In this document: positions 19,935 through 53,393 of the stretch, in pieces
Numbering within the stretch: position 1 is the stretch's first letter
Layout of the letters: each line of letters opens with the position of its first letter
Assembly: GCF_022814725.1 (NCBI RefSeq)
Contig: NZ_CP093442.1
Location: 1,736,001 to 1,800,000, forward strand
Source: Bdellovibrio reynosensis
GTDB taxonomy: Bacteria > Bdellovibrionota > Bdellovibrionia > Bdellovibrionales > Bdellovibrionaceae
Reading direction: 5' to 3'
Length of the DNA: 64,000 nucleotides
The notes under the pieces: model-generated
Database searches by the model: none
What the model was told of the DNA's origin: nothing
The model's input: the letters and a program-made list of their open reading frames with translations, nothing else
Made by a program: the position numbers and the translations under genes

Positions 19935-20130
19935 AAAAAGAAGCAGGCACCTTTAAAGCAAGAAATGCCGAAGGCATTGCGAGCGCAGCGAAGACCGAGG
20001 AACAAAGGTTGGCGAGAAGGGTTCAAGCGCAAGGCGGAAGCCTCTTCCCGCAGCGCAGGTGTGGCAGCGCCACATCGGAGCGAGGACAAGAGGATTCCAA
20101 CGCAGTCGATTGAGCCCTTATCGACGACCG
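19935..20130 (-). repeat. Dispersed structured intergenic element, copy A
   Basis: Shares its left end (AAAAAGAAGCAGGCACCTTT) with copy B and its middle and right end with copy C. The right end CAACGCAGTCGATTGRGCCC is common to all three. Inside, an AATGCC/GGCATT hairpin is followed by an outer helix (CCTCTT at 20041-20046 with AAGAGG at 20088-20093) enclosing GTGGCAGCGCCAC (20061-20073). On the minus strand the element begins just beyond the rRNA operon terminator. Between the hydrolase stop (19882) and this element I see nothing else. Confidence 0.8.
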
Positions 20131-20143
20131 GCCCGAAGAAGAC

Positions 20144-20178
20144 AAAAAAAAACCCGGATTACTTTCGTAACCCGGGTT
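20144..20178 (-). terminator. Rho-independent terminator of the rRNA operon
   Basis: A 12-bp stem (AACCCGGGTTAC with GTAATCCGGGTT, one mismatch) closed by a tetraloop and followed on the minus strand by a run of seven or more T. It lies 13 bp past the 5S 3' end. Confidence 0.93.
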
Positions 20179-20190
20179 CGAGTAAAAAAG

Positions 20191-20308
20191 AGCTGGCATC
20201 GTGCTACTCTCCCACATGGTCGCCCATGCAATACCATCGCCGCAAGAGGACTTAACTTCTGAGTTCGGAATGGGATCAGGTGTGGCCCCTCTGCTATAAA
20301 CACCAGCA
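20191..20308 (-). rRNA. rrf: 5S ribosomal RNA
   Basis: About 118 nt. The conserved core CCGAACTCAGAAGTTAAG and GAGAGTAGCAC are present. The terminal helix pairs TGCTGG at the 5' end with CCAGC at the 3' end. End points are estimated from this helix to within a few bases. It is the last gene of the operon, about 280 nt after 23S. Confidence 0.95.
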
Positions 20309-20414
20309 AAGCGTTTATTAAAACAAAGTGTTCTTAGCTCTCCAAGAGGATTTCTCCCTCTTGTTTTATCCAGGATCTCGCGATCCGGATAGAACTTTGG
20401 TTATTCAACCGAAT

Positions 20415-20484
20415 GATTAATTTAACTGATTTTTAGCGAGCCTTATACACTCTAACTTCGTTAGAGTAAGGTTCTGTTAGTTCC
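20415..20484 (-). other. 3' arm of the 23S rRNA processing stem, with an inserted hairpin
   Basis: The 23S-5S spacer contains a sequence complementary to the 5' flank of 23S (23531-23565). The match is split: 20415-20440 pairs with the outer part and 20476-20484 (GTTAGTTCC) with the inner part. The intervening 35 nt form their own hairpin. Such flanking helices are the normal target of RNase III in pre-rRNA. The rest of the 20309-20587 spacer shows no gene. Confidence 0.75.
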
Positions 20485-20587
20485 AATTATCACTCTCTTA
20501 CTTATTCAGAGAGCTAGTCTCTCGTTCTTTTTTCAAAGAAGTCTTAGAGACGAAATCTTCGTTAATAAAATTAAGAAGAAAAAATTT

Positions 20588-23528
<2,941 letters not shown>

Positions 23529-23530
23529 AT

Positions 23531-23565
23531 GGAACTAACCTCGCTAAAAATCAATTAAATCAATC
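23531..23565 (-). other. 5' arm of the 23S rRNA processing stem
   Basis: Immediately upstream of 23S. It is complementary over about 34 nt to the split arm at 20415-20484, so 23S would be enclosed in one long helix in the precursor. Confidence 0.75.
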
Positions 23566-23569
23566 TATT

Positions 23570-23585
23570 CAGTTGTCAAAGAACG
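23570..23585 (-). promoter_or_regulatory. BoxA-like antitermination element in the 16S-23S spacer
   Basis: The minus strand reads CGTTCTTTGACAACTG, nearly the same as CGCTCTTTGAAAACTG in the 16S leader. It resembles the boxA used by Nus factors in rRNA operons. A short palindrome (ACTCCGAC/GTCGGAGT, 23632-23650) lies in the same spacer, which otherwise holds only tRNA-Ile. Confidence 0.6.
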
Positions 23586-23704
23586 AAAATCGTTCGAAGC
23601 AAATTCTCTCTCGCGCATCCCTTACAAATCTACTCCGACGGAGTCGGAGTGAATCGGCAACTTAGGCCATGGATCGTTTACCGATCACACTTCTGCGACT
23701 AAGT

Positions 23705-23781
<77 letters not shown>

Positions 23782-23818
23782 GTGTGGGATTTTCGAGTGA
23801 GAAATCACTCTTTCAAAA

Positions 23819-23848
23819 CTAAATAGCTAGATGAGATTTTTGGGACTC
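23819..23848 (-). other. 3' arm of the 16S rRNA processing stem
   Basis: About 90 nt past the 16S 3' end. It is complementary, with one small bulge, to 25546-25578 in the 16S leader (core CAAAAATCT and CTAGCTATT). Pairing would enclose 16S for RNase III cleavage. Confidence 0.75.
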
Positions 23849-23931
23849 ACCCACTCGGGAAGAGTGAGTTGACCTAAGATTGGGTCATTTTAACTTATTA
23901 AGAACAAGTCTTAATGAAGATTGACCGGATA

Positions 23932-25455
<1,524 letters not shown>

Positions 25456-25545
25456 ATTCTGTTCTCTAAGCAAACAACTAGCTTACGCTGTGTTTGTTCG
25501 AATATATTTTTTGAAATTGTGAATGATAATTACTCATCATTCAAA

Positions 25546-25578
25546 GAGCCCAAAAATCTATCATATCTAGCTATTCAG
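25546..25578 (-). other. 5' arm of the 16S rRNA processing stem
   Basis: In the 16S leader, complementary to 23819-23848 beyond the 16S 3' end. Confidence 0.75.
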
Positions 25579-25591
25579 TTTTCAAAGAGCG
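25576..25591 (-). promoter_or_regulatory. BoxA-like antitermination element in the 16S leader
   Basis: The minus strand reads CGCTCTTTGAAAACTG, about 120 nt before 16S and repeated in similar form before 23S. It matches the usual boxA core CTCTTT. Confidence 0.6.
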
Positions 25592-25638
25592 AATTTTTCA
25601 ATTCAATTTCGCTTTCTATTCAAAAGCGCGAGGTAACA

Positions 25639-25666
25639 ATCTTATCGATTTTTTTGTCCTCGTCAA
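25639..25666 (-). promoter_or_regulatory. Candidate rRNA promoter between tRNA-Ala and 16S
   Basis: -35 TTGACG (25661-25666), 16-bp spacer, -10 TAAGAT (25639-25644). It lies about 180 bp upstream of 16S. If used, 16S can be transcribed without tRNA-Ala. No terminator is seen between tRNA-Ala and this point, so read-through is also possible. Confidence 0.55.
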
Positions 25667-25714
25667 CGTTCTTTTTTTTATTTTTTCGTCATTCGACAAA
25701 AGTCTAAAAAAGTT

Positions 25715-25790
<76 letters not shown>

Positions 25791-25805
25791 GAACGAAGTG
25801 GAGCT

Positions 25806-25834
25806 GTTTTCTCGTAACGGCCCAAAAAGGTCAA
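25806..25834 (-). promoter_or_regulatory. Possible promoter for tRNA-Ala
   Basis: TTGACC (25829-25834) lies about 40 bp upstream of the tRNA. At a 17-bp spacing the -10 is GAAAAC, a poor match. A GC-rich stretch follows. Confidence 0.3.
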
Positions 25835-25882
25835 TAGCTTTTTTTCGAAAATTTAATTAGTTCGTTGAAGTTGCCTAAGACA

Positions 25883-25908
25883 TAAACCGAGGCTTGCGCC
25901 TCGGTTTA
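25883..25908 (-). terminator. Hairpin after the 25945-26457 gene
   Basis: TAAACCGAGGC and GCCTCGGTTTA form an 11-bp perfect stem with a TTGC loop, 37 bp past the stop of the hypothetical gene. The minus-strand T-run is weak (TTTATGTCTT). It probably isolates the rRNA operon from upstream transcription. Confidence 0.6.
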
Positions 25909-25944
25909 CAAAAATCTTATTTAAGTTGCTGTATTTACTTAATT

Positions 25945-26457
25945 TTAAGCGCTGGCGTTAAATTTTGACGCCAAAAGTCTATTCAACCACTTTCTTTCAA
26001 AGCTTAGGTCAAACCCTACTTTTTCTCCGCCAGAAACGATGGCCATATACACTTTTTTAAGGATTTCGGTCTCTTGATCGCCGCCCGCATCTGAACCTAA
26101 TGATTCTTCAATAGCTTCAAATACGCTTACTAGATCTGGAGTCGTAACTACTTTTGGGATTCGAGCCATGTCTAACCCCAAAGTCTCTAGAGGTTTGAAG
26201 CCTACAAGGTTCTCTGTCAAAAGCACCTTTGTGCCATTCTTGAAGTTAACTTGAATGAAGGGCTTACCCTCTGAGTCTGCACGATGAAGGATCTCACTGA
26301 GATCCTGAGTGATGAAGGAAAACACCTTACCATCTAGGTCTTGCGAAATCTGAACTCGACCTGACTCGCTGATCTTCGCACGAAGACCTTTCGAGGCATC
26401 GACAAAATTCAAGATGTGATCTAATTCAGCATGTGTCGATTTCGTTTTACTGCTCAA
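25945..26457 (-). CDS. Hypothetical cytoplasmic protein
   Basis: 170 residues, no signal peptide or membrane segment. It starts at a TTG (26455-26457) preceded by GGGAGGG. The N-terminal half alternates strands (RAKISESGRVQISQDLDG; IQVNFKNGTKVLLTENLVG) and the C-terminal half is helical with a basic end (FERKWLNRLLASKFNASA). No family was recognised. The strong ribosome site, the domain-like pattern and the terminator support a real gene. It is directly upstream of the rRNA operon but separated by a hairpin, so no functional link is implied. Confidence 0.65.
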   Translation of the reverse strand: MSSKTKSTHAELDHILNFVDASKGLRAKISESGRVQISQDLDGKVFSFITQDLSEILHRADSEGKPFIQVNFKNGTKVLLTENLVGFKPLETLGLDMARIPKVVTTPDLVSVFEAIEESLGSDAGGDQETEILKKVYMAIVSGGEKVGFDLSFERKWLNRLLASKFNASA

Positions 26458-26681
26458 AATACCCTCCCCTAATAATAGGGCTTTCCTCTTTACATTCTAG
26501 GTATCGACAATTCATTCGCGGACTTAACGACAAAACAAAAAAAGGTAATAAACAGGTCGGATAGCCTGTAGCAAATTGAGCATTCTGTGTGGACAGTGTT
26601 TCAAGGCGAGATTCATAGGCGGCGTGACTTGTACTTGCCGTTTCGATTTGAGATAACATTATTCGAAAGAGGGCCCTCCCT

Positions 26682-26987
26682 ATGATGATCACGCGTTGGC
26701 AAGCACCAATAGTTCCGACAAAACAACAGGTTCAAATGATTCTTGAGTCTGAAGGATTAGAACCTTACGAAGAGGTTTACGAACCTTCCATTAAGATTCA
26801 AGATCATCGCCATCCCTTTGCTGAAGTCAGAGTGGTTGTATCTGGAGAAATGATTTTTAATATCTCTGGAAATCAATTTGTTTTACGTCCTGGCGACAGA
26901 GTGGAAATTCCTGCTAACACTAAGCACTCTCATATGGCTCAGGGAAATCAAAACTGCATTTGCGTTTGCGCTCATCGTGCGATCTAA
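26682..26987 (+). CDS. Small cupin-domain protein
   Basis: A 101-residue single cupin (RmlC-like barrel). Motif 1 is DHRHPFAEVRVVVSGEM, with His, His and Glu as likely metal ligands, and motif 2 is PGDRVEIPANTKHSHMA, with the last ligand His. Small cupins of this type include dioxygenases, isomerases and sensor domains, and the substrate is unknown. Start at the first of two ATG codons (26682). It is divergent from the hypothetical gene and convergent with rarA, sharing the hairpin after its stop. Confidence 0.8.
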   Translation: MMITRWQAPIVPTKQQVQMILESEGLEPYEEVYEPSIKIQDHRHPFAEVRVVVSGEMIFNISGNQFVLRPGDRVEIPANTKHSHMAQGNQNCICVCAHRAI

Positions 26988-27017
26988 AAAAAATGCCTTC
27001 AGTTCTTGAAGGCATTT
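26986..27017 (-). terminator. Rho-independent terminator of rarA
   Basis: AAATGCCTTC and GAAGGCATTT form a 10-bp stem with a 7-nt loop. On the minus strand it is followed by a run of T. It may also stop the cupin transcript from the other side. Confidence 0.85.
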
Positions 27018-27021
27018 CTGA

Positions 27022-28323
27022 TCACTTATTTTTCATCCAGCTTAAATAGTCCTTGATGTTCTTTTCGAAGCCCCGGTTTGTCGGCTCGTAAAGTTGTGCG
27101 CCTTGAATTTCTTCAGGGAGATACCCTTGTTCTACCCAGCCTGTGGGATAATTGTGGGGATATCGATAGTCTTTCCCGTAACCAAGTTCCTTTGAAAGTG
27201 CGGTTTTTGAAGAGCGCAGGTGTAACGGAACTGGTAAGGTTCTAGTTTTCTCAACCAGTTCACGGGCTTTATTTAAAGACATATAAGAAGCATTGGATTT
27301 TGGGCACGAAGCTAGGTAAGTCGTCACTTGTGCTAAAGTTATAGCGCCTTCTGGAAGACCGATGGCTTCTACGGCCTGCAAGCCTGAAGTGGCTACCGTA
27401 ATACCTCGGGGATCTGCATTCCCGATATCTTCTGATGCCAGAATGATAAGCCTTCTAGCGATAAAGATAGGATCTTCCCCGCCGTCGAGCATTCTTGCTA
27501 GATAATAAACGGCTGCATCTGGGTCGCTTCCGCGCACACTTTTAATGAAGGCAGAAATGAGATCATAGTGCATCTCGGAGCTTTTATCGTAGCCCAGGGG
27601 ATTTTGCTGGAGCAGCTCGCGCATTTCATTGCGATCAAGTCTTTCGCCTTCTTCGGCGTCTTTTGTGTAGGTGTAGATGATCTCAAGGCTATTAATAAGC
27701 CTGCGTGCATCCCCGTCTGAGTATTCTAAAAGATTATCGATCGCTTCTTTTGTAAGGACCGATTCAAGGGGCTTTTTATAGTGGTTTTCGGCGCGTATGA
27801 CGATCTTACTGAGATCTTCTTCAGACAGACGCTCGAAAATCACAACGCGACAGCGGCTTAAAAGAGCTCGATTCAATTCGTAGCTTGGATTTTCAGTAGT
27901 AGCACCAACTAGAACAAGATCGCCTTTTTCAACAAAAGGCAGAAGAACGTCTTGTTGAGCTTTATTAAAGCGATGAATTTCATCCACAAAAAGCACAGTC
28001 TTTTGTTGGAACTGAAGACGACGGTCTTTACCCGCCTCCCCTACTTCACGAAGAACCTTGGCACCCGCTTCGACAGCGTTGATGTTTTCGAAATGCGCAT
28101 TGAAGTGCTGGGAAAGTGCAAGGGCGAAGGTCGTTTTACCCGTACCTGGAGGCCCCCAGATAATCAAGCTAGGAAGATATCCCTTACGAAGCATCTGCCC
28201 TAACTTTGAATGAGCCCCCAGTGTCTTTTCCTGCCCAATGATTTCATCCAGATTTTTCGGACGAAGAATCTCTGAAAGCGGAGAAGAACTTAAAGCAGCA
28301 TTAGAGGCAGAAAATAAATCCAT
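27022..28323 (-). CDS. rarA: Replication-associated recombination protein A (RarA/MgsA AAA+ ATPase)
   Basis: A 433-residue AAA+ ATPase of the clamp-loader superfamily that acts at stalled forks. Visible: IIGQEKTLG near the start, Walker A WGPPGTGKTT (about 50-59), Walker B LFVDEIHRF, sensor 1 GATTENPS, arginine finger region ALLSRCRV and sensor 2 GDARRLINSLE. The C-terminal tetramerisation part includes YYLARMLDGGEDP and HLRSSKT. The ATG at 28321-28323 gives the family N-terminus MDLF; an open stretch upstream encodes nothing conserved. It is a single-gene unit with its own terminator. Confidence 0.95.
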   Translation of the reverse strand: MDLFSASNAALSSSPLSEILRPKNLDEIIGQEKTLGAHSKLGQMLRKGYLPSLIIWGPPGTGKTTFALALSQHFNAHFENINAVEAGAKVLREVGEAGKDRRLQFQQKTVLFVDEIHRFNKAQQDVLLPFVEKGDLVLVGATTENPSYELNRALLSRCRVVIFERLSEEDLSKIVIRAENHYKKPLESVLTKEAIDNLLEYSDGDARRLINSLEIIYTYTKDAEEGERLDRNEMRELLQQNPLGYDKSSEMHYDLISAFIKSVRGSDPDAAVYYLARMLDGGEDPIFIARRLIILASEDIGNADPRGITVATSGLQAVEAIGLPEGAITLAQVTTYLASCPKSNASYMSLNKARELVEKTRTLPVPLHLRSSKTALSKELGYGKDYRYPHNYPTGWVEQGYLPEEIQGAQLYEPTNRGFEKNIKDYLSWMKNK

Positions 28324-28496
28324 GCATAGGTAATAAACCAACCCCGACGGGTTTGGCATCACAGATTTAGTAAATCAAAGAACCAACATATTAAAAGAAA
28401 GGAAGAAGGCACTAATCTTAATTAACGTACGACTAAAAGTTCAGGTCCCCGCTGAAAGAACCCAGCCCCCAACACTATTTGACGCGCCATGGACCG

Positions 28497-28680
28497 AAAA
28501 AAGAAGCAGGCACCTTTTAAATCTATCCGGATTATTGTCCCATTTTTTCCGAAGGGCGGCGCTAAGAAGTGAAGAGTCCGACAAAAATGCCAGGAGGGCA
28601 TTTTTGCGCGCAAGCCCCGCAGGGGTTTCGGGCAGGAGCCCGAAACACAACGCAGTCGATTGGGCCCTTTTCATCAGCCG
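28497..28680 (-). repeat. Dispersed structured intergenic element, copy B
   Basis: The left end (AAAAAAGAAGCAGGCACCTTT) and right end (CAACGCAGTCGATTGGGCCC) match copy A. The middle differs and holds three hairpins: AAAAATGCC/GGCATTTTT (28583-28605), CCCC/GGGG (28615-28625) and TTCGGGC/GCCCGAA (28627-28644). On the minus strand it begins 5 bp past the stop of the lipoprotein gene at the end of the pil operon, so it would form that transcript's 3' end. The remaining gap to rarA (28324-28496) shows nothing recognisable. Confidence 0.75.
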
Positions 28681-28684
28681 TAAG

Positions 28685-29230: not shown

Positions 29231-29241
29231 GTCCGCTCCTT

Positions 29242-31437: not shown

Positions 31438-31459
31438 TAGTTCCTCCTGAAAAAAAGTA

Positions 31460-34465: not shown

Positions 34466-34485
34466 GCGTTTGCTGCTTCCCCGGG

Positions 34486-34533
34486 TTGTGCCACAAAGAT
34501 GTCATTTCAACGACTTACGTCTTTGGGACACAA
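34486..34533 (-). promoter_or_regulatory. Long inverted repeat in the pilM leader
   Basis: TTGTGCCACAAAGA (34486-34499) and TCTTTGGGACACAA (34520-34533) are complementary except for the middle positions, with a nested GTC/GAC pair in the loop. It starts just downstream of the predicted transcription start and ends 20 bp before the ATG, so it would form a 5'-leader hairpin or a repressor site. Confidence 0.55.
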
Positions 34534-34547
34534 GTCCTAATAGTAAA

Positions 34548-36962: not shown

Positions 36963-36971
36963 GTTTGAATT

Positions 36972-41047: not shown

Positions 41048-41059
41048 TCGTTCCCCCTT

Positions 41060-43679: not shown

Positions 43680-43714
43680 CTAGAACCCGAGAATATGGAT
43701 CGAAGACAAATATG

Positions 43715-44434: not shown

Positions 44435-44437
44435 ATT

Positions 44438-45154
44438 CTAATAGACGTTTTTAAAAAGGCGTTGAAAACGAATTTGCGATGGATCGCAGACAAAAGTCAT
44501 TGTTGGCAAAGTGTTTTCACATGACAACCATACAACCCAGGCTTTTCCGACGATGTAATCATCTTTTACAAAACCCCACGCGCGGGAATCACTGGATTGG
44601 TCACGGTTATCGCCCATGAAGAAATAATTTCCTTCAGGCACAACAAACACCTGCGGGCTACCACCTTCGGCATCCGACAAGAAGCGAACTGTGTAAGCAG
44701 AACTATCCAGATTTTCTTCAGCAAAATATTTAAAACCGGCGTCTTGTCCCGGAAGATCCAGCGGTGTCAAAAGAAAGCTTTGTCCATTCACTGTGATTCG
44801 GCCATTGATGATTTCAATTTTATCGCCAGGAAGACCTATTAAGCGTTTGATGTAGTAAACGTCGGGATTTTCAGGGTACTTGAAAACGGCAATTTCTCCA
44901 CGTTTTGGAGCAGACCATTTCACAAGCCAGGTGTTGCTAAAAGGAATATGTAAACCGTAAGCGAATTTTTTAACTAAGATATGATCATGAACCAAAAGAT
45001 TTGGGATCATGCTACCAGAAGGAATGACAAAGGGTTCAACCACCGCCCAACGCACTCCAAACACAAGTAGTAACGGAAAAAGGAACGTTAGAATGGCTTG
45101 ATTCCACGTTCCTTTTAAATTGGTCTGTTTTGAAGTGTCGCTTGTTTCAGACAT
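44438..45154 (-). CDS. lepB: Signal peptidase I (second tandem copy)
   Basis: 238 residues. Membrane helix about 18-40, catalytic Ser in VIPSGSMIPNL, catalytic Lys in YYIKRLIGLPGDK, box E FMGDNRDQSSDSRAWG. All active-site residues are intact. The ATG overlaps the stop of the preceding copy (TAATG), so translation is coupled. It differs clearly from the other copies outside the motifs, so the duplication is not recent. Confidence 0.94.
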   Translation of the reverse strand: MSETSDTSKQTNLKGTWNQAILTFLFPLLLVFGVRWAVVEPFVIPSGSMIPNLLVHDHILVKKFAYGLHIPFSNTWLVKWSAPKRGEIAVFKYPENPDVYYIKRLIGLPGDKIEIINGRITVNGQSFLLTPLDLPGQDAGFKYFAEENLDSSAYTVRFLSDAEGGSPQVFVVPEGNYFFMGDNRDQSSDSRAWGFVKDDYIVGKAWVVWLSCENTLPTMTFVCDPSQIRFQRLFKNVY

Positions 45155-45921
45155 TAATTAACTGGGTGGAAGAATCGGCCCCAACGCACAGTCAACGGAT
45201 TGCACAGCATCGGCAGTACCGGAATTGTTTCTTCACAGCTTAACCATACGAACATCGCCCGGCCCAAAATGTTTTGCTTCGGCAAAAAGCCCCACACACG
45301 GCCGTCTGAAGAATTCATGCGGTTATCACCCATCACAAAAAGATGGTCGTTAGGAACAGTCACAGGCCCAAACGTTTCGTAGATATCGCCTTTGCGCAAA
45401 AGAATCGCGTGACCTTTGCCACCTGGAAGTTCTTCCCAGAATTCTACGTAGTTGTCTTTGTTGTCGTTGATATTGCCGTCACGTTGGAAGTCAGCATCGC
45501 GCAGCCATTCGAAATCTTCCATGTCTGCAGGAACTTTCTTTTCAACGGGCTTATCGTTCACGTAAAGAGTTCCGTTTTCATAATAAATCTTATCGCCGGA
45601 TTCACCCACGATACGTTTGATGAAGAATGTGCTCATGTCTTTAGGATATTTAAAGACAATCACTTCACCACGTTTTGGTTCGTTGAACTTCACTAACCAT
45701 TTTTCGCTGAATGGGACGCGAAGGCCGTAAGTAAGTTTATTTACGAAGATATGGTCATGAATCAACAACGATGGAAGCATCGATCCAGAAGGAATCACGT
45801 AAGCTTCAATAAAGCCCCAGCGAATGAACAAGGCGATAAACACAGCTAAGAATAGAGAGCCCCACCCTTCAGTCCAAAAATGTTTTGTGCGCCAGTTCCA
45901 GCTATTCTTGTTGTCGCTCAT
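45154..45921 (-). CDS. lepB: Signal peptidase I (first tandem copy)
   Basis: 255 residues. Membrane helix about 19-40, catalytic Ser in VIPSGSMLPSL, catalytic Lys in FFIKRIVGESGDK, box E VMGDNRMNSSDGRVWG. It follows lepA by 22 bp, the same lepA-lepB order as in E. coli, and is therefore the best candidate for the housekeeping enzyme. The C-terminal segment ends in a short Cys-containing loop (CEETIPVLPMLCNPL), a pattern shared with copy 2. Confidence 0.94.
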   Translation of the reverse strand: MSDNKNSWNWRTKHFWTEGWGSLFLAVFIALFIRWGFIEAYVIPSGSMLPSLLIHDHIFVNKLTYGLRVPFSEKWLVKFNEPKRGEVIVFKYPKDMSTFFIKRIVGESGDKIYYENGTLYVNDKPVEKKVPADMEDFEWLRDADFQRDGNINDNKDNYVEFWEELPGGKGHAILLRKGDIYETFGPVTVPNDHLFVMGDNRMNSSDGRVWGFLPKQNILGRAMFVWLSCEETIPVLPMLCNPLTVRWGRFFHPVN

Positions 45922-45943
45922 GGATGCTCCTCTAGGGTCTGTA

Positions 45944-47743
45944 CTAGTCTTCCACTTTTAAAATCGCTAAGAAGGCTTCTTGCGGCACTTCGACATGGCC
46001 GATGGCCTTCATGCGTTTTTTACCCTCTTTTTGCTTCTCTAGAAGCTTACGCTTACGAGAAATATCACCACCATAACACTTAGCGGTCACGTCTTTTCTG
46101 ATCGCACCCAAGGTTTCACGGGCAATAATTTTTGCACCGATCGCAGCTTGAATCGCTACTTGGTATTGTTGGCGCGGGATCAATTCTTTCATCTTTTCAG
46201 TCAATAAACGACCACGTGTAACCGCTTTTGATTTATGGACGATCAATGAAAGGGCATCAATAGGTTCACCATTGATAAGAATATCAAGTTTCACCAAGTC
46301 TGACTCTTCAAAACCTACGAATTCATATTCCAAAGAAGCGTACCCTTTAGAGATAGATTTCAAACGGTCATAGAAATCCATAACCATTTCATTCATCGGA
46401 AGTTTGTATTCGATGATCACTTTTTTATCAGTGACGTATTCCATCTTCTGCTGAATACCGCGTTTGTCTTCGCACAACTTTAAAATACCGCCGATATAAT
46501 CCGTCGGAGTATGCAGAGTCACTTTTACGTAAGGTTCTTCAAATTTCGCGATCTGGGTTTCAGCTGGCATGCCTGATGGATTTTCTAACATCATCTCGGT
46601 GCCATCAGTTTTAGTGATTCTGTAAACAACCGTTGGCGCTGTTGTGATGAGGTCTAGATTGAATTCACGCTCTAAACGCTCTTGCACGATTTCCATATGC
46701 AAAAGACCCAAGAAACCGCAACGGTAACCAAAACCAAGGGCCGCTGATTTTTCGATTTCAAAAGTCAATGAAGAGTCATTTAAACAAAGTTTGTCCAAAG
46801 CATCTTTTAAGTTTTCATACTCTGAAGCAACTACAGGGAAGATACCCGCAAATACCATCGGCTTAATTCTTTGGAAACCTGCTAATGGTTCTGTTGCTGG
46901 GTGCTTTGCCGCTGTAACAGTGTCACCAACTTGGACGTCGCGGATGTCTTTAATACCACACACGATGAAGCCCACTTCACCAGCTTCAAGAGTGTCTTGC
47001 ATAACTGGGAATGGCTTGTATTTACCCATGCGCAAAACTTCGTAATCACGGTCTGTCGCCATGAACTTGATTTTGTCGCCTTTTTTAATAGCTCCATCCA
47101 TCACCCGAACTAGAACTACAACGCCTTGATAAGCATCAAACCAAGAGTCAAAAATCAAAGCGCGCGGAGTTAGACTGCGATCCGCTTTCGGTGGCGGAAC
47201 TTTTTCTACTATGGCCTCAAGGATATCAGTGATACCGATTTTTTCTTTCGCAGAAGCATGGATGATTCCAGTGCAGTCTAAGCCCACTGTATCTTCGATT
47301 TGTTTTGCTACACCTTCTGGGTCCGCGGAAGGAAGATCGATTTTATTTAGAACAGGAATAATCTCTAGGTCATTTTCTAACGCCAAGTATACGTTGGCTA
47401 ATGTTTGCGCTTCCACCCCTTGGGCTGCATCCACAACTAGGATAGCACCCTCACAGGCTGCTAAAGAGCGAGATACTTCGTAAGAAAAATCCACGTGCCC
47501 CGGAGTATCGATCAAGTTGATTTGGTACATGTTGCCGTCTTTAGATTTGAAATCTAAGCAGACAGTTTGCGCTTTAATTGTGATACCGCGTTCACGCTCA
47601 AGTTCCATGTTATCTAGGAATTGATCTTTCTTTTCGCGATCTGAAAGAGAGCCGGTAGCGGATAGAAGTCCGTCAGCCAAGGTTGATTTACCGTGGTCGA
47701 TATGTGCGATGATTGAAAAGTTTCGAATAAATTTTGGATCCAT
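45944..47743 (-). CDS. lepA: Elongation factor 4 (LepA GTPase)
   Basis: 599 residues from the ATG at 47741-47743, which fits the family N-terminus ([21 protein letters not shown]) better than a longer frame. G1 is [10 protein letters not shown]3 DTPGHVDF, G4 NKIDLP and G5 SAKEKIG. The EF-G-like domains follow, and the LepA-specific C-terminal domain ends about 500-599 with [20 protein letters not shown]. LepA acts on ribosomes during initiation or stalled elongation. It heads the lepA-lepB(x3) unit. Confidence 0.97.
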
Positions 47744-47797
47744 ATCCACCCTTGCGGCTAATTGCCCAGAGAAACTAAGCGCGTAGCCGGCAGTATA

Positions 47798-47836
47798 CAA
47801 ATAAGAAGCGCCGAGTTGCTAGAGACAACTCGGCGC
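47798..47836 (-). terminator. Hairpin terminator of metK
   Basis: GCGCCGAGTTG and CAACTCGGCGC form an 11-bp perfect stem with a 7-nt loop, 25 bp past the metK stop. The minus-strand tail is CTTCTTATTTG, a weak T-run. Confidence 0.75.
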
Positions 47837-47860
47837 AATGACTAAGCTTTTTGAATATTA

Positions 47861-49024
47861 TTAAGCCAAAGTTTTTACAGCGTCTTTAAGCTGTTCAACT
47901 TTGTTTAATTTTTCCCATGTGAAGCTTTCTTCATTACGGCCGAAGTGTCCGTAAGCAGCTGTTGGGCTGTAAATTGGACGAAGTAGGTCCAATTCCTTAG
48001 TGATTCTTGCAGGGCGCAAGTCAAATACTTGGCGTACTGCTTTTTCAAGAACCTCTGGGCCCACTTTGCTTGTGCCGTAATCGTTAACAGTGATGCTTAC
48101 AGGTTCAGCAACACCAATCGCATACGCCACTTGCACCAAACAACGGTCTGCTAAACCAGCACCCACGATGTTCTTAGCAATATGACGAGATGCGTAAGCG
48201 GCAGAGCGATCCACTTTTGAGGGATCTTTACCAGAGAATGCACCACCACCGTGGGCACCGTGACCACCGTAGGTATCTACGATGATTTTACGGCCGGTAA
48301 GGCCAGCGTCACCCATTGGACCACCTGTTACGAAACGGCCCGTTGGGTTGATGAAGAATTTAGTTTTTGCATCGATCCATTTGCTTGGAATTGATTTTTT
48401 GATCAACTCTTCAGTGATGAATTCTTGGATTGTTGCGTTTGAAACATTGTCTGCGTGTTGAGTAGAGATAACGATCGCGTCGATACGTTTTGCAAGACCG
48501 TTTTCATACTGAACAGTCACTTGAGATTTAGCATCTGGACGTAACCAGTCTACTTTGTTTGCTTTACGCAGACCCGCTAGATCATGAACTAGCTTATGAG
48601 ACATCGCGATTGAAAGAGGCATCAATTCTGGAGTTTCGTTTACTGCGTAACCGAACATCAAACCTTGGTCACCAGCACCTTGATCGTCAGAAAGAGTTTC
48701 TTTAACACCTACTGCGATATCTGGAGATTGTTGGCCTACCGCAACCATCACAGCGCAAGTTTTGTAGTCAAAACCCTTGTCTGAATGATCGTAACCAATG
48801 CGTTTAACTACATCGCGGGCTACTTCTGAAAAGTTCACTTTTGCTGAAGTTGTGATTTCACCAGCTACTACAACCAAACCTGTAGTTAGAAGAGTTTCAC
48901 AGGCAACGCGACCTTTTGGGTCTTGCGCTAAGATGGCATCAAGAACGCCATCAGAAATTTGGTCAGCCATTTTATCCGGATGGCCTTCAGATACAGATTC
49001 ACTGGTAAACAAATAGTTCTTCAC
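47861..49024 (-). CDS. metK: S-adenosylmethionine synthetase
   Basis: 387 residues, normal length. Signatures: [31 protein letters not shown] (methionine and ATP binding) and [19 protein letters not shown] (P-loop-like). It makes S-adenosylmethionine from methionine and ATP. The start is a GTG with GAGGA 9 nt upstream. The leader can fold so that this ribosome site is partly paired (see the leader feature). mtn and apt, which recycle SAM by-products, are 2-3 kb upstream on the same strand. Confidence 0.97.
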
Positions 49025-49035
49025 AGTAATGCTTC

Positions 49036-49117
49036 CTCATTAGGAAAGGTGTTAATGAGCTCGGTTGCAGGATGCTTAAGTGTACCTGAAACCATCCTAA
49101 ATGCCCTTCGCATTTAG
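49036..49117 (-). promoter_or_regulatory. Structured metK leader, candidate translational control element
   Basis: CTCATTA (49053-49059) pairs with TAATGAG (49036-49042), covering the first bases of the GAGGA ribosome site. Upstream, CTAAATGC/GCATTTAG forms an 8-bp hairpin (49097-49117). It competes for bases 49097-49099 with an alternative stem between TAGGATG and CATCCTG (49093-49099 with 49068-49074). A TTGACC about 30 bp further upstream (49150-49155) could be a -35. I could not match it to a known SAM or SAH riboswitch class. Confidence 0.45.
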
Positions 49118-49151
49118 CGAGGCGCCAAGCTATCAAAGTGAGATAGACGGG

Positions 49152-49760
49152 TCAAGAACCCTTGGATTTCTCGTGGTAAAAATAGCTCAACTCGAGGAAA
49201 AATATGGTGAAACCACCGACCAAGCCAATGAGGCCTAAGCCAATCATGAATTGGGCGACCGTTTGCCCCAATGGAGTCAGGCTGGATTCAGGCACATAGC
49301 CGCTTGCGTGTAGGTAGTACATGCTAAGAAATCCGAGGGCGGTGATAAAAATCCACAAAGCGGCGTGGAATTTATTAGTTAGAATGCCCACAATTAAAGG
49401 CAAAACAGCAAACCAAATCAACGTTGGAGCAAAAAAGCCCCCAGTGAAAAATGAAAATGAGAACTGGAAAATCATTCCGGGCACGACCATGCAGTAAGCG
49501 CCCGAACAAATAGATTTAGTCCACTTTCCCACCACAGGTGCCAGGGCGTGAACCATAGAACAAGCAAAGCCGATATAAGCGACTTCTTTTCTTTCAACCA
49601 AAAGAAGTGCAATAAAGCTATAAGTCCACATCAATAAACCGGTAAACACGGTTATGAGCGTAAGAAGCTTATACTTAAATAAGCGGACCGTTTCGCTTTC
49701 CTCAATCACGGCTGAGAAAACAAAATCGTTCCAATTTTGTGCTTGTTCCATATCGCTCAT
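49152..49760 (-). CDS. Polytopic membrane protein, sensor-domain-like
   Basis: 202 residues. About 30 cytosolic residues are followed by six predicted membrane helices (about 33-53, 60-78, 84-104, 108-128, 131-150, 168-195) and a short basic tail (YHEKSKGS). Small acidic N-terminus, no catalytic motif. The helix pattern is like the membrane part of some sensor kinases, but no output domain follows; the frame simply ends. It could be a degenerate or stand-alone sensor. It is located between metK and hpf. Confidence 0.6.
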   Translation of the reverse strand: MSDMEQAQNWNDFVFSAVIEESETVRLFKYKLLTLITVFTGLLMWTYSFIALLLVERKEVAYIGFACSMVHALAPVVGKWTKSICSGAYCMVVPGMIFQFSFSFFTGGFFAPTLIWFAVLPLIVGILTNKFHAALWIFITALGFLSMYYLHASGYVPESSLTPLGQTVAQFMIGLGLIGLVGGFTIFFLELSYFYHEKSKGS

Positions 49761-49781
49761 AAATTTGTTCCAGTACGTTCC

Positions 49782-49818
49782 AAAAAAAAGAGAGTGGTTT
49801 GTTTGTAAACCACTCTCT
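49782..49818 (-). terminator. Rho-independent terminator of hpf
   Basis: AGAGAGTGGTTT and AAACCACTCTCT form a 12-bp perfect stem, followed on the minus strand by TTTTTTTT. It ends the hpf unit 27 bp past the stop. Confidence 0.93.
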
Positions 49819-49844
49819 TGATCAAGTCTATAGCATCTTGTTTA

Positions 49845-50192
49845 TTACGCTGCTTTTTTCCAGCGCACCGGTTCGAAGCGTACATCCTTCGATAACTCCG
49901 GCTTTTTATGATTTTTGTACTGCTTGCTGATCTTCAAAAACTGTTTTTCAAGTTTATCTGAAACAGAATCCACTGCTGCATAGATATCTGACGCGTAGGC
50001 GGTGGCTTTAAAGTACTTCTCTTTAGTATTCACGGAAATCTCGACACAGAACTCGTGATTCTGCTTAGAAAAATACACGTTGCCGTAACCCTCTTTAAGC
50101 AGGAAGCGACTGACCTCATCCATCTTTTCGCTGGTGTAGTTTACTAGCGAACCTGAATGATCCAAATGCTTAAAGGTATAGTTGAGTTTCAT
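49845..50192 (-). CDS. hpf: Ribosome hibernation-promoting factor, short form
   Basis: 115 residues from the ATG at 50190-50192, preceded by AAAGGGG; a longer frame adds non-conserved residues. It has the S30AE domain only: KLNYTFKHLDHS start, VEISVNTKEKYFKATAYASDIYAAVDSVSDKLEKQ centre and the basic YKNHKK end. Short HPF proteins promote 100S dimer formation with RMF or block the A/P sites. In most proteobacteria hpf follows rpoN; here it lies 3 kb downstream of rpoN, past several genes, one of them on the opposite strand. Confidence 0.9.
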   Translation of the reverse strand: MKLNYTFKHLDHSGSLVNYTSEKMDEVSRFLLKEGYGNVYFSKQNHEFCVEISVNTKEKYFKATAYASDIYAAVDSVSDKLEKQFLKISKQYKNHKKPELSKDVRFEPVRWKKAA

Positions 50193-50283
50193 TTTTTCCC
50201 CTTTCAAGGCGTATGCGAAGCCCTTCGGCTTCATGCCATTCTTATCGGCCTACCTAGACCAAAGATGAGCCTTAATTTGAGAC

Positions 50284-50763
50284 TCAGTAGGATTTTTTTT
50301 CGGTTAATCGGCATTTTCGAAAGATCTTGAGGTCTTCTCGATTTCCAAGATAGCGGCTTACTGGGGACATATGATCATAAGCTTCCCGGCAGCGACCGCT
50401 TTGGGCAGAAATTTGGGCGTCAAAATAAGAATCCCGCAAGGCTGCAGGAAGACGATCGATTTCCTGGGAAAATGATTTTCCCTCTTTTAGCTGTTTTTTA
50501 TATTTTTCCAGCTCTTGCTTTGAACGACGTTCAAATTCACGGATATCAGAATATTTCGGGGGCAGATCTTTCGGGATTTTACGGGATAAATCCACAACTC
50601 CCTCAAAGTTACCCACTTCGAAATAGGTTTTAGATTTCATGTAAAGCTGTTCAAATTCTTGGGAGGTCGGCAGCGGTTCCTTTTTGCCAAAAGGATTGCC
50701 TAAGTAGCCGATAAGAAGGCCGCTGAGTGCGACCGAGTAAGTAAGCCATTTTAAAGCTTGCAT
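50284..50763 (-). CDS. Hypothetical membrane-anchored or exported protein
   Basis: 159 residues. The N-terminal hydrophobic segment (LTYSVALSGLLIGYLG) is a signal anchor or signal peptide. The rest is helical and charged (FERRSKQELEKYKKQLKEG) with a pair of Cys (GRCREAYD, FRKCRLT). The spacing of YFEVGNFEGVVDLSRKIP is like a TPR helix pair. No family was recognised. It stands between hpf and mtn, with gaps of about 60-90 bp. Confidence 0.6.
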   Translation of the reverse strand: MQALKWLTYSVALSGLLIGYLGNPFGKKEPLPTSQEFEQLYMKSKTYFEVGNFEGVVDLSRKIPKDLPPKYSDIREFERRSKQELEKYKKQLKEGKSFSQEIDRLPAALRDSYFDAQISAQSGRCREAYDHMSPVSRYLGNREDLKIFRKCRLTEKKSY

Positions 50764-50824
50764 GAAACTCTTATCGGAAAGTTTTCACTCTTGGATAAGA
50801 GTTTCGATGTCTCACTTTGAGATT

Positions 50825-51397
50825 TTACTTCACCATTTTCTTATAATATTCCAAAAGCTTTTTAGCCCCTAAAACCAGATTGGCTTCCCAATCATTATGG
50901 GCGTTATGGTCAGCTCCGTCGGTGATATATTTTAATGAAACCAACTGAACACCCATCTTGCGGCATACTTTCGCTAGGGCATAACCTTCCATATCCACCA
51001 GTTCACAAGGCACCTTTGGCGTACCCGTTTCAAAGCTGTCACCAGTTCCGCACACACCTTGGGAAAGCTCTGGAAAAAAAGGAATCAGCTCGATGGCCCC
51101 TGGAATCGGATCAAAAGGAGTTTCCCCTACTTTAAAACCTAAGGGTGAAATATCCATATCACGTTGAACGAAAGTGCTAACTTCAACCAAATCGTGGGTG
51201 GGAAATTTAGAACTTCCAGCTGTGCCAAGATTAATGATCACTTTGCATTTGGTTTTTTGAATGACGTCCATTGCGACCATCGCGGCATTCACTTTACCGA
51301 TTCCAGTGTAGTGAACATTGATGTTTTCTTTTTCAAAAAGACCTTGGGATTCCCCAGGCAGAGCCATTAATAAAGCAATATCATTAGTATTGAACAA
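50825..51397 (-). CDS. mtnN: 5'-methylthioadenosine/S-adenosylhomocysteine nucleosidase-like protein
   Basis: 190 residues, shorter than the usual 230. The purine-nucleoside phosphorylase fold is visible: MALPGESQ near the start with a catalytic Glu, INLGTAGSS, VDMEGYALAKVC with the ribose-binding Met-Glu pair, and YITDGAD with the catalytic Asp. It should release adenine from MTA or SAH. The missing 40 residues fall mainly in the middle. The TTG start with GAGGT upstream overlaps apt by 14 bp, so adenine release and salvage are coded together. Specificity could differ from canonical MtnN. Confidence 0.78.
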   Translation of the reverse strand: MFNTNDIALLMALPGESQGLFEKENINVHYTGIGKVNAAMVAMDVIQKTKCKVIINLGTAGSSKFPTHDLVEVSTFVQRDMDISPLGFKVGETPFDPIPGAIELIPFFPELSQGVCGTGDSFETGTPKVPCELVDMEGYALAKVCRKMGVQLVSLKYITDGADHNAHNDWEANLVLGAKKLLEYYKKMVK

Positions 51398-51881
51398 GGG
51401 AGAATACCTCTTTGTTGTTGAATTTCATTTGATTCAAAAATGTTAAATTCACGAGTACTGCAACTTCCTGCACTTTGTATCCAGCTAGGAAACTTAAATC
51501 AATAGCTGCTTGCAAAGTTCCGCCTGTTGCCAACACGTCATCAACGATCATGATGCGACCTTGTCCGATTGGCAGTTCAATTTCTGCAGAACCGTATTCA
51601 AGTTGGTAAGAAATTCTTTTTGTGGGCGGAGGAAGTTTGCCGGCCTTTCTGATCGGCAGGAAACCTTTGTTATGAGTTGATGCTAAATGTGCGGCTAAGA
51701 TAAATCCTCTTGATTCAATTCCCGCAAAATAATCAATTTGCGAAAGATCCACATTCTGAATGAAGTTTTTAGAGACATAACTCATGGCCTCTGGGGATTG
51801 TAAAAGGGGCGTCATATCCCGGAATAGAATTCCTTCTTTAGGAAAATCTGGAACATCGCGAATGAGGCTTTTTAAATCCAT
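51384..51881 (-). CDS. apt: Adenine phosphoribosyltransferase
   Basis: 165 residues. The PRPP loop is IMIVDDVLATGGTL (about 104-117), with the substrate patterns PKEGILFRDMTPLL (about 14-27) and DYFAGIESRGFILA. It converts adenine and PRPP to AMP. It overlaps the mtn gene downstream, forming a salvage pair that recovers adenine produced from SAM metabolism. A short perfect palindrome lies in its leader. Confidence 0.94.
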   Translation of the reverse strand: MDLKSLIRDVPDFPKEGILFRDMTPLLQSPEAMSYVSKNFIQNVDLSQIDYFAGIESRGFILAAHLASTHNKGFLPIRKAGKLPPPTKRISYQLEYGSAEIELPIGQGRIMIVDDVLATGGTLQAAIDLSFLAGYKVQEVAVLVNLTFLNQMKFNNKEVFSLVQY

Positions 51882-51900
51882 CTCAACTCCACCGGTCTAC

Positions 51901-51919
51901 ACTCCGACTTCGTCGGAGT
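51901..51919. promoter_or_regulatory. Perfect palindrome upstream of apt
   Basis: ACTCCGAC-TTC-GTCGGAGT, 8-bp arms, 20 bp before the apt ATG. The same arms with a GGA loop occur in the 16S-23S spacer (23632-23650). It could be an operator, an mRNA hairpin or a small dispersed repeat. Apart from this, the 140-bp gap before the plus-strand lipoprotein gene shows nothing clear. Confidence 0.45.
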
Positions 51920-52022
51920 ACTTAGTCTACCCACTGATACCTCGAAACAGGCACTATTTTGATGTAAACGCCGCTTCGAGTAAAGAGTGTCTGAGCAGAA
52001 ACTTTTGGAATAGGCTTCAGAA

Positions 52023-53258
52023 ATGACAGCATTTAGACTTTTTGTGTTTTTTTACTTAAGTCTTTTCTTGATGGGCTGCTCGACACGTCAGATCATCCGT
52101 GATTCTGAATATCGGGATGCGGAAGCGGCCTATCGTTCTGGCGATATTTCACAAGCTTTAGAGCGTTTTCCTAAGAAGGAAAAAAAGGGTTACATCACTT
52201 CACTTGAAAAAGCATGGCTAGGTCTATGGACTGGCGAAGCGGATAATAAAGATTTGTTGCGACAGTCCCGCACGTTTGATGAAAGAAAATTCACCAGCAT
52301 TCTGCGCGAGACTGAATACTTCTTCTATAGTGAAGCTGAAGATGGTTACATTCCCGCTGAGCACGAAGTCATCGTCATGCATTTGATCAACGCCACCTAT
52401 TTTATGCGGCAGAAAAAATGGGCCCAAGCGAGTGTGGAAACTAGGAAGGCGACTTTCTTTCTACAGAATTATTTCCGTGAAGATCAGAGCCACTTTGATG
52501 ATCCGGCTTTGCGATTGTGGCTTGCGGGAATTTATGCGGCTTTAGGTGAATGGAATGAAGCACAAGTTGATTTGCGCAAAGTTTATCAGCTTACGAAAAA
52601 CAAAGAGGCTTTGCGTTTGAGTGAGTTGTCGCGCGCGCCAGATAACATCACTCTTATTTTTGATGGCAGCGGACCTACATTGCGTTGGTACGAAGGTAAT
52701 GCGACACCGGAATTTTTAAACAGAACGCAAACTCCTAAGACTGAATTGCATTTTTCAACATTGCCGTGGTTTGAGCGTCATCAACAGCGCAACACCGCTA
52801 TTCGCAATGTGGTGATGAAATCAAACTACATGGCGCAGTATTATGGTCTTAAAGGAAGTGTGGGTGCCGAAAAGTCTGCGGGCTTTGTAGCGTCCAATAC
52901 TATTCGCGGAGTTGGTATTGCTGCTGGAGTCGTGATCATTGGTGGTGGATTATATTTACTTGCTCAGAGTGGAGCGTCCGGCGCAGGCGAAGCAGCTGGC
53001 TATATAATTGGTACTGGTTTACTAGCTGGTGAAACTTTGTGGGAAAAAGGCGACGAAGTTTCAAAGGCCTTTACCGAGTCAGCAGAAGAAAACAAGACGC
53101 GCGGCTTAGAAAATTTAAAAACCTATCGCTTCGTGCGCTTCTTACCAAGTTGGATTTCGTTTATGGATTCGGGAATTCCTGAAACTGCCAATACAAAAGG
53201 GTTTGTAATCAAATCGCCGCAAGGAAAAACGGCCGTTCAATTCCTGCAAAGATTCTAA
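52023..53258 (+). CDS. TPR-like lipoprotein, COG3014-like
   Basis: 411 residues. The signal is MTAFRLFVFFYLSLFLMGCS, lipobox Leu-Met-Gly-Cys. About 30-205 is helical and TPR-like (AEAAYRSGDISQALERF; YAALGEWNEAQVDLRKVYQL). A beta region follows, then a Gly/Ala-rich hydrophobic segment (GIAAGVVIIGGGLYLLA, about 300-345) that may insert in a membrane. The layout is like the uncharacterised COG3014 lipoproteins. It is the only plus-strand gene between 27 kb and the right end. Structured element C follows its stop by 1 bp. Confidence 0.75.
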   Translation: MTAFRLFVFFYLSLFLMGCSTRQIIRDSEYRDAEAAYRSGDISQALERFPKKEKKGYITSLEKAWLGLWTGEADNKDLLRQSRTFDERKFTSILRETEYFFYSEAEDGYIPAEHEVIVMHLINATYFMRQKKWAQASVETRKATFFLQNYFREDQSHFDDPALRLWLAGIYAALGEWNEAQVDLRKVYQLTKNKEALRLSELSRAPDNITLIFDGSGPTLRWYEGNATPEFLNRTQTPKTELHFSTLPWFERHQQRNTAIRNVVMKSNYMAQYYGLKGSVGAEKSAGFVASNTIRGVGIAAGVVIIGGGLYLLAQSGASGAGEAAGYIIGTGLLAGETLWEKGDEVSKAFTESAEENKTRGLENLKTYRFVRFLPSWISFMDSGIPETANTKGFVIKSPQGKTAVQFLQRF

Positions 53259-53259
53259 T

Positions 53260-53393
53260 CAAGAACCAAGGTTGGCGAGAAGGGTTCATATGCAAGGCGG
53301 AGGATCTTTCGCGAAACGCAGGCGTGGCAGCGCCACGTCGGAGAGAAGCGAAAGACCGCACAACGCAGTCGATTGGGCCCTTATCGGCGACCG
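53260..53393 (-). repeat. Dispersed structured intergenic element, copy C
   Basis: Matches copy A from AAGGTTGGCGAGAAGGGTTC through the right end CAACGCAGTCGATTGGGCCC and the following TTATCGRCGACCG. The outer helix TCTTTCGC (53305-53312) with GCGAAAGA (53348-53355) has a sequence different from copy A, while the enclosed GTGGCAGCGCCAC (53324-53336) is identical. On the minus strand it starts 3 bp past the rpoN stop. Confidence 0.82.

What the first reader, a model, noticed from the sequence alone, without database searches (positions are those of the whole stretch)
19935..53393. Three copies of a modular, hairpin-rich intergenic element with a compensated helix
Copies at 19935-20130 (A), 28497-28680 (B) and 53260-53393 (C) share a conserved end (CAACGCAGTCGATTGRGCCC). 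A and B share the opposite end (AAAAAGAAGCAGGCACCTTT). A and C share the middle. The outer helix differs in sequence between A (CCTCTT/AAGAGG) and C (TCTTTCGC/GCGAAAGA) but stays paired, while the inner GTGGCAGCGCCAC is unchanged. B replaces the middle with three other hairpins. In each case the element begins just downstream of a minus-strand 3' end: the rrn terminator, the pil-operon lipoprotein and rpoN. This suggests a family of 3'-end RNA elements or REP-like repeats.
Basis: seen in the sequence. Interest (0 to 1): 0.78.

Follow-up and report, generated by a model that had tools for sequence, protein, structure and literature searches.

The report
Fork-oriented hairpin repeats in Bdellovibrio
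Dozens of short DNA repeats in Bdellovibrio and its relatives keep the same hairpin shape while their letters change, and nearly all point against the direction of DNA copying, which suggests they spread during replication by an enzyme not yet identified.

Summary
The repeat is real. A and C are copies of a discrete 123-bp hairpin element. A covariance model from 25 copies finds 78 places in this genome at E<=1.1e-5, 22 of 24 genus genomes and 63 of 290 phylum genomes. Its 22-bp stem ends sharply; letters change but pairing holds, with 750 Watson-Crick, 80 G.T and 0 A.C cells, so one strand's fold is kept. Position 15 is C.C in 43 of 43 usable copies of other genus genomes, but paired in 25 of 60 own copies and in 5 of 5 outside the genus. 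Orientation follows replication, not transcription: between convergent genes 31 oppose the fork and 1 does not; HD100 31 of 31; G007 shows none. Two lineage-specific gains show mobility. Copies abut stop codons, often beside or in place of terminator-like hairpins. Corrections: the end shared by A and B is another repeat, linked to a Y1 transposase gene, and B is rearranged. Best reading: a non-autonomous mobile hairpin, REPIN/YPAL-like, inserted at replication forks by an unidentified enzyme, perhaps Y1. No Rfam family matched.

The parts
20007..20129 (+). Copy A, complete element (123 bp): stem arms 20007-20028 and 20108-20129, core 20029-20107
   Evidence: R1 133.5 bits, E 1.3e-34; arms paired over 22 positions apart from the family's mismatches
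53270..53392 (+). Copy C, complete element (123 bp): stem arms 53270-53291 and 53371-53392; its 3' end lies 3 nt from the rpoN stop codon
   Evidence: R1 148.3 bits, E 6.6e-39; rpoN confirmed
28582..28679 (+). Copy B, truncated or rearranged: three extra hairpins 28582-28606, 28612-28628, 28626-28645, conserved CAACGCAGTC 28648-28657, 3' stem arm 28658-28679; the 5' arm is missing
   Evidence: R1 only 17.3 bits, E 0.72; similar extra hairpins in the copies at 2524767, 650560 and 1699951, read by eye
19936..19954 (+). Independent repeat AAAAGAAGCAGGCACCTTT near A; not an end of the element
   Evidence: 46 places genome-wide; flanks the Y1 transposase gene at G000:1958715
28499..28517 (+). The same independent repeat near B
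53396..54829 (-). rpoN (sigma-54), leading-strand gene whose stop codon abuts copy C
   Evidence: TIGR02395 460.8 bits
20191..25453 (-). rrn operon (5S, 23S, 16S) whose 3' side faces copy A; a copy with the same adjoining downstream bases lies at 949649
   Evidence: Rfam; flanks

Best explanation
This is a family of discrete, non-autonomous mobile hairpin elements of about 123-125 bp. Shown: sharp ends at a 22-bp stem; one strand's fold kept by compensatory change, with mismatches at fixed places; copies gained in single lineages; nearly fixed orientation against the replication fork whatever the neighbouring gene directions; placement at 3' ends of leading-strand genes, often beside or in place of terminator-like hairpins. 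Inferred: an enzyme acting in trans recognises the folded strand largely by shape and inserts the element at replication forks where hairpins are exposed as single-stranded DNA. The orientation then follows from which strand is single-stranded. The best candidate enzyme is a Y1 (RAYT-like) HUH transposase; this link is modest. Once inserted, the hairpin may serve or replace a terminator, which would help it to persist.
For: 78 places in this genome at E<=1.1e-5; 0 to 45 copies in 23 congeners. Covariation: 26 of 38 pairs changed on both sides; 0 of 500 shuffles reach 143 double-change cells; slid controls 12-17. Stem: 750 WC, 80 G.T, 0 A.C cells over the inner 16 positions of 60 copies; 34 distinct sequences at positions 5-16; own-arm pairing 0.822 vs 0.635 for arms of different copies, highest of 200 shuffles 0.66. 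The 22-bp length repeats in 43 usable copies of other genus genomes, all with C.C at position 15. Orientation: convergent 31:1, tandem-lagging 9:2, tandem-leading 23:4, divergent 5:1 (P 1.5e-8 for 31:1); HD100 31 of 31, its record starting with dnaA. Gains by parsimony: HD100 3422455 is empty in G023, G002 and G016; G023 470315 is empty in HD100, G002 and G016.
Against: No enzyme is tied to the element: G013 (45 copies), G017 (17) and G008 (5) have no Y1_Tnp match at E<=1e-3, while G003 and G004 have one each and no copies. The strand whose fold is kept is not the lagging-strand template, the opposite of what IS608-type recognition of template ssDNA predicts. G007 shows no polarity (best split 5 of 8). 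15 of 22 comparable HD100 sites are shared with G023 and five with this species on both flanks at 72-81% identity, so many copies are old. The C.C at position 15 is not kept outside the genus (5 of 5 paired) nor in 25 of 60 own copies. No target-site duplication was seen.
Confidence: 0.55

Rival explanations
1. A functional RNA element in head-on or antisense transcripts: RNA polymerase moving against the fork makes the sense fold just before it would enter the 3' end of a leading-strand gene, and the fold stops or insulates it.
For: Sense fold with G.U but no A.C in the stem; sense RNA fold -59.8 vs antisense -48.0 kcal/mol; 41 of 57 antisense 3' neighbours end within -18 to +9 nt of the model hit; at 5 of 9 element-free sites printed the relative has a terminator-like hairpin, judged by eye.
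Against: No T-run or promoter is conserved in the flanks; 23 fork-opposed copies lie between tandem leading genes, where no sense transcript is expected; copy number runs from 0 to about 80 between congeners; none of 8 HD100 attack-phase sRNAs is a copy.
Confidence: 0.18
2. Insertion is unoriented, but copies whose more stable sense hairpin would lie on the lagging-strand template are lost by deletion or selection, leaving the observed polarity.
For: As DNA, the sense strand folds more stably in 59 of 60 copies, by 6.0 kcal/mol on average, and the observed orientation keeps it off the lagging template.
Against: The antisense hairpin is still stable (-24.9 kcal/mol), so 31 of 31 in HD100 seems too strict; the two clean gains already have the common orientation.
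Confidence: 0.12
3. A Y1 (RAYT-like) transposase of the genus moves the hairpin, directly or as cargo of the repeats that flank Y1 genes.
For: 4 of 16 further Y1 loci of G012, G021 and G022 have a copy within 450 nt after the Y1 stop on the same strand, and one more has a copy 2.7 kb away; two others were found because a copy lies there (G019, G012). A related hairpin that R1 misses follows the G005 Y1 gene (L137, by eye). The AAGNAGGYACCT repeat flanks Y1 genes in this genome and in 8 of 30 first-fetched Y1 loci; 5 of 46 own repeats lie just 5' of a copy on the same strand, none 3'; one G023-only insertion holds both (site 1383034).
Against: In the first 30 Y1 loci only one 15-bit match; 58 Y1 places against printed copies gave 2 pairs within 1 kb, 0.42 expected; Y1 loci hold several other repeats; 41 of 46 own repeats are not next to a copy; site 1594222 has the repeat without the hairpin in G023; hairpin-rich G013 has no Y1 match.
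Confidence: 0.11
4. The covariation is not selected: arms are copied from each other by template switching at quasi-palindromes.
For: Arms do change together at the same site in different species (47 two-sided changes over all pairs compared).
Against: Template switching would erase mismatches, yet C.C at position 15 is present in 43 of 43 usable copies of other genus genomes and G.T outnumbers A.C 80 to 0.
Confidence: 0.04

Closest known systems
REPIN / REP-RAYT system (PMC3116915 and PMC6006769, abstracts and passages)
   Same: Dispersed extragenic hairpins with compensatory changes; non-autonomous; a Y1 transposase is present in most genomes of the genus and some copies lie right after a Y1 gene
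   Different: REPINs have two short conserved REPs and a free spacer; here the stem is free and the inner loop is conserved. No GT[AG]G foot is conserved. The own Y1 gene is flanked by another repeat
YPAL / RU-2 and ERIC / RU-1 of enterobacteria (PMC2229807, passages)
   Same: 100-200 bp palindromic repeats; YPAL targets span or lie next to dyad symmetry and its empty and filled sites are known; ERIC is 127 bp
   Different: No Rfam or sequence link tested or seen; stem sequence is not conserved here; phylum-wide spread; fixed orientation against the fork; no target duplication seen
Group IIC introns (PMC10190682, start of abstract in a listing only; terminator targeting recalled)
   Same: Insertion next to hairpins with replication-linked strand choice (recalled)
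   Different: No RVT_1 match in this genome, no intron match in Rfam, about 123 bp only
Integron attC sites (recalled)
   Same: Structure kept while sequence varies; recognised as one folded strand
   Different: No core boxes seen; integron-integrase model above cut-off in 0 of 39 genomes; mostly scattered singly

Membership tests
REPIN mobilised by RAYT | REP with a GT[AG]G foot | tested here: not met
   Flank and arm base counts of 60 own copies show no such foot
REPIN mobilised by RAYT | Its own Y1 gene flanked by the same repeat | tested here: inconclusive
   30 Y1 loci: one 15-bit match; 16 further: 4 with a copy just after the gene; the own Y1 gene has another repeat
MITE of the ERIC/YPAL kind | Short, dispersed, hairpin-forming, mostly between genes | tested here: met
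MITE of the ERIC/YPAL kind | Empty and filled sites between close relatives | tested here: met
MITE of the ERIC/YPAL kind | Terminal repeats shared with a transposon, target duplication | tested here: inconclusive
   Ends vary between copies; no duplication at 2 clean sites; no parent transposon established
Integron attC | Integron integrase in the genome | tested here: not met
   0 of 39 over the model's cut-off; weaker matches in all 39 and in all 14 controls
Group II intron fragment | Reverse transcriptase and intron RNA domains | tested here: not met
   No RVT_1 in the own genome at E<=1e-3; no Rfam intron hit
Any Rfam 15 family | Covariance-model match at the element | tested here: not met
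   None at the gathering score in the window; in 12 loci only weak overlaps, E 0.23 or more, below cut-off
Intrinsic terminator | Hairpin followed directly by a T-run | tested here: not met
   No T-run conserved on either side; one G023 copy has A8 next to its 5' end, so a T-run on the other strand

The most novel reading that the evidence does not exclude
A new class of replication-coupled mobile hairpin: an unknown recombinase recognises a 22-bp stem by its shape and fixed mismatches, almost regardless of sequence, and inserts it at replication forks into or beside exposed terminator hairpins. It is spread across Bdellovibrionota, with two relatives seen in other phyla.
Probability: 0.27. 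Interest if true: 0.82.

Novelty: new variant of a known kind. Interest (0 to 1): 0.62.

Why it matters
Many bacterial palindromic repeats have no known mover (recalled), and a link to replication is rarely visible in them. Here the polarity is almost complete in several genomes, empty and filled sites exist in the model strain HD100 and a close relative, and the structural signature (22 bp, a mismatch at a fixed place, conserved inner loop) is sharp. That makes fork-coupled insertion and shape-based recognition directly testable in a laboratory predator. The family also lets one separate replication from transcription as the cause of repeat orientation.

Tried and rejected
Rfam at permissive thresholds on 7 and 5 loci: nothing convincing. 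Reverse transcriptase as mover: none in the own genome. Integron integrase: none over cut-off. Viral contigs (two exact patterns), phages and plasmids (one query): no match. An rpoN scan of viral contigs gave no relative. Exact-pattern scan of genome contigs: 21 stretches, 8 in B. bacteriovorus kdesi, 5 in Bdellovibrio MAGs, 8 others. Of the 8, Candidatus Adiutrix (R1 E 1.6e-12) and one Clostridia MAG (E 1e-4) match R1 and six do not. A simple terminator count around copies was uninformative. The strand test on the second helix was ambiguous (41 G.T, 46 A.C with a crude register), so the strand claim rests on the outer stem. Copies dropped: of 81 places, 2 had no fetched sequence and 13 no recognised core; 6 of the remaining 66 do not pair in the stem register. 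In one search, 48 genus copies of other genomes were tried and 43 used; outside the genus 5 of 11. Literature: five searches with Bdellovibrio and repeat, RAYT, palindromic, ncRNA or structured-RNA terms showed no description of this element in the rows listed; three of them matched more papers than were listed, and only open papers are held.
Full report
WHAT IS THERE. The window is G000:C1:1736001-1800000 of a 3.58-Mb single-contig genome. It belongs to the genus of G006, whose bases 1073741-1074185 hold a c-di-GMP-I riboswitch where merRNA of B. bacteriovorus HD100 was mapped (PMC3627812, passages and the sRNA section read). I call G006 HD100. The conserved end occurs 35 times in the own genome with up to 3 mismatches and never in the reversed control. 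I aligned 25 copies and built covariance model R1. R1 gives 82 rows at E<=1 in the own genome: one is the other strand of a listed place, 78 places have E<=1.1e-5 and 3 are weak, copy B among them.

ANATOMY. Reading inward from the ends, the element has a 22-bp stem, a conserved inner loop (GCAAGGCGGAGG facing CAACGCAGTC), a second stem of variable sequence and an apical hairpin. Of 60 usable own copies 55 are 120-126 bp, four are 76-106 and one is 188. Their stems pair at positions 1-22, apart from fixed mismatch positions, and lose pairing at 23-24. Flanks beyond it are only weakly alike, with an A/C-rich 5' side. So the ends are exact. Some copies carry three extra hairpins (B, 2524767, 650560, 1699951) and some lack the apical part.

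THE FOLD IS KEPT, ON ONE STRAND. RNAalifold predicts 38 pairs, 26 with a compensated change. With that structure, 143 cells have changes on both sides; no shuffle of 500 reaches this (mean 40.9) and slid controls give 12-17. Two caveats apply: the structure came from this alignment, and related copies inflate such counts. Across the 60 stems there are 34 distinct sequences at positions 5-16; own arms pair at 0.822 against 0.635 for arms of different copies. Non-Watson-Crick cells are one-sided: 80 G.T and 0 A.C over the inner 16 positions. In 43 usable copies of HD100, G023 and other genus genomes the sum over 22 positions is 74 G.T and 3 A.C. The sense strand is therefore the one whose fold matters. 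Position 15 is C.C in all 43. In the own genome it is C.C in 35 of 60 and paired in 25, nearly all in a second stem class with a G.A at position 13. Outside the genus it is paired in 5 of 5 usable copies, so the mismatch is a mark of the genus, not of the whole family.

DISTRIBUTION. Matches at E<=0.01 occur in 22 of 24 genus genomes (G014 only at 0.006), 0 to 45 copies in the 23 congeners, and in 4 of 15 genomes outside the genus. In the phylum 63 of 290 genomes and 35 of 162 genera match under stricter filters. Outside it, a Candidatus Adiutrix contig (E 1.6e-12) and a Clostridia MAG contig (E 1e-4) match. Phage, plasmid and viral collections gave nothing.

ORIENTATION FOLLOWS REPLICATION. 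In 19 sampled 10-kb stretches GC skew is positive in 11 of 12 from 2.54 Mb through 0 to 0.79 Mb, and negative or near zero in 6 of 7 from 1.0 to 2.51 Mb; the signal is noisy. I set the fork boundaries at 0.74 and 2.54 Mb, knowing the strand switch of the copies, so the own-genome test is not fully independent. With my own gene caller, 76 of 81 copies have both neighbours. Opposed to the fork versus along it: convergent 31:1, tandem-leading 23:4, tandem-lagging 9:2, divergent 5:1. A convergent pair has no net transcription direction, so transcription cannot set 31:1. The independent test is HD100: 16 copies on minus below 1.6 Mb and 15 on plus above 2.0 Mb, 31 of 31. The copies printed for G002, G005, G012, G013 and G022 split 53 of 53 at half the record, origins not checked. 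G023 fits 30 of 33. With a free split G021 fits 9 of 9 and G016 10 of 11, but shuffles reach those values in such small sets. G007 does not fit: 5 of 8, below the shuffled mean. Except for HD100 and G023 these lists hold the best-scoring copies printed, not all.

PLACE. 57 of 76 copies have an antisense gene on the 3' side, and 41 of those end within -18 to +9 nt of the model hit, which reaches a few bases past the stem; some genes use a stop codon inside it. Convergent spacers are enriched: 32 of 76 versus 21 of 120 background spacers of 30 nt or more (P 2.5e-4). Downstream of rpoN, the own genome, G013 and G016 have this element, while about ten of 23 genomes have other long-hairpin families right after the stop, by eye.

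MOBILITY. HD100 and G023 were compared site by site where sequence was in hand: 22 of 31 HD100 copies could be placed. 15 are shared, six have no counterpart and one has lost its centre in G023; four G023 copies have none in HD100. In the ten alignments printed (the eleventh, 3452291, was left out), nine are element-free sites. Five of these carry a terminator-like hairpin instead (341654, 996585, 1213412, 3072600, 2609958, judged by eye), and two insertions lie right beside an intact terminator (3422455, 1383034). Site 3422455 is also empty in G002 and G016, and site 470315 is empty in HD100, G002 and G016, so by parsimony HD100 and G023 each gained a copy. Neither shows a target duplication. 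Other copies are old: five HD100 sites match own sites on both flanks at 72-81% identity. At shared sites the stems differ by compensated changes: 239 unchanged, 47 two-sided, 19 one-sided and 69 broken or mismatched over all pairs compared; 39 of the 69 come from three pairs in which a copy was read in a wrong register.

WHAT MOVES IT. Unknown. No reverse transcriptase was found in the own genome and no integron integrase over its cut-off in 39 genomes. A Y1 transposase exists in 33 of 39 genomes, once in the own genome. Five of 46 such repeats lie just 5' of a copy on the same strand, well above a rough chance estimate of under one. R1 finds one 15-bit match in those 30 loci. Of 16 further Y1 loci of G012, G021 and G022, four have a copy within 450 nt after the Y1 stop on the same strand (L405, L413, L415, L419); a fifth, fetched knowing this, has one 2.7 kb away. 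Two more were fetched because a copy lies there (L402 and L403, where a second copy follows in tandem). Density of printed copies alone predicts 0.42 pairs within 1 kb for 58 Y1 places, with 2 seen in the printed lists. This makes the Y1 enzyme the best candidate, no more. The strand that is folded is not the one exposed on the lagging-strand template, which argues against a plain copy of the IS608 scheme (lagging-strand targeting: PMC6006769, abstract and passages).

COMPARISON. REPINs form hairpins with compensatory changes (PMC3116915, passages). YPAL elements target sites next to dyad symmetry and ERIC repeats are 127 bp (PMC2229807, passages). The present family works like these but shares no tested defining sequence with them. 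Its distinguishing marks are the free 22-bp stem with mismatches at fixed places, the phylum-wide spread and the polarity. I class it as a new variant of a known kind.

Noticed in passing
G000:C1:1955500-1962500 (L216): Single Y1 transposase gene flanked by GGTGCCTGCTTCTTTTTTGGGTCTACAC repeats; the 46 genome copies of this motif also lean to the same fork polarity (35 of 46 by my hand count).
   Followed up: partly
L195, L197, L198, L199, L202, L207, L209, L210, L212, L213, downstream of rpoN: Other families of long hairpins sit right after the rpoN stop in congeners; some share GTCCTCGCTC with this family, and the long arms of L195, L197 and L198 differ yet look complementary (by eye).
   Followed up: no
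L403 1521-1770 (G012:C1:3041521 on), L079 958-1634, L080 1501-1767: Tandem copies: two head to tail just after a Y1 gene in G012, three within 680 nt in G013, two adjacent in G017.
   Followed up: partly
L410, L411, L413, L417, L418, L419 and L403: Other Y1 genes of G012, G021 and G022 are accompanied by a different repeat, GACCGATACCC and its complement (by eye).
   Followed up: no
L137, after the Y1 gene of G005: A hairpin with a related core (GCGAGGCGCGAGG facing CAACGAAGCAG) that R1 does not find: perhaps a further subfamily.
   Followed up: no
window 20007-20129 and G000:949649: Copy A and a second copy share the same adjoining downstream bases, as expected for a second rrn operon.
   Followed up: no
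L216, downstream of the Y1 gene: A tandem array of CATCACT units lies between the Y1 gene and an inverted copy of its flanking repeat.
   Followed up: no
G023:1383034 and G006:1594222: Variants AAAAGTAAGCAGGTACCTTTTAA of the Y1-linked repeat lie just 5' of copies in other species as well.
   Followed up: partly
G007: The one complete genome where printed copies show no replication polarity; rearrangement or assembly not checked.
   Followed up: no
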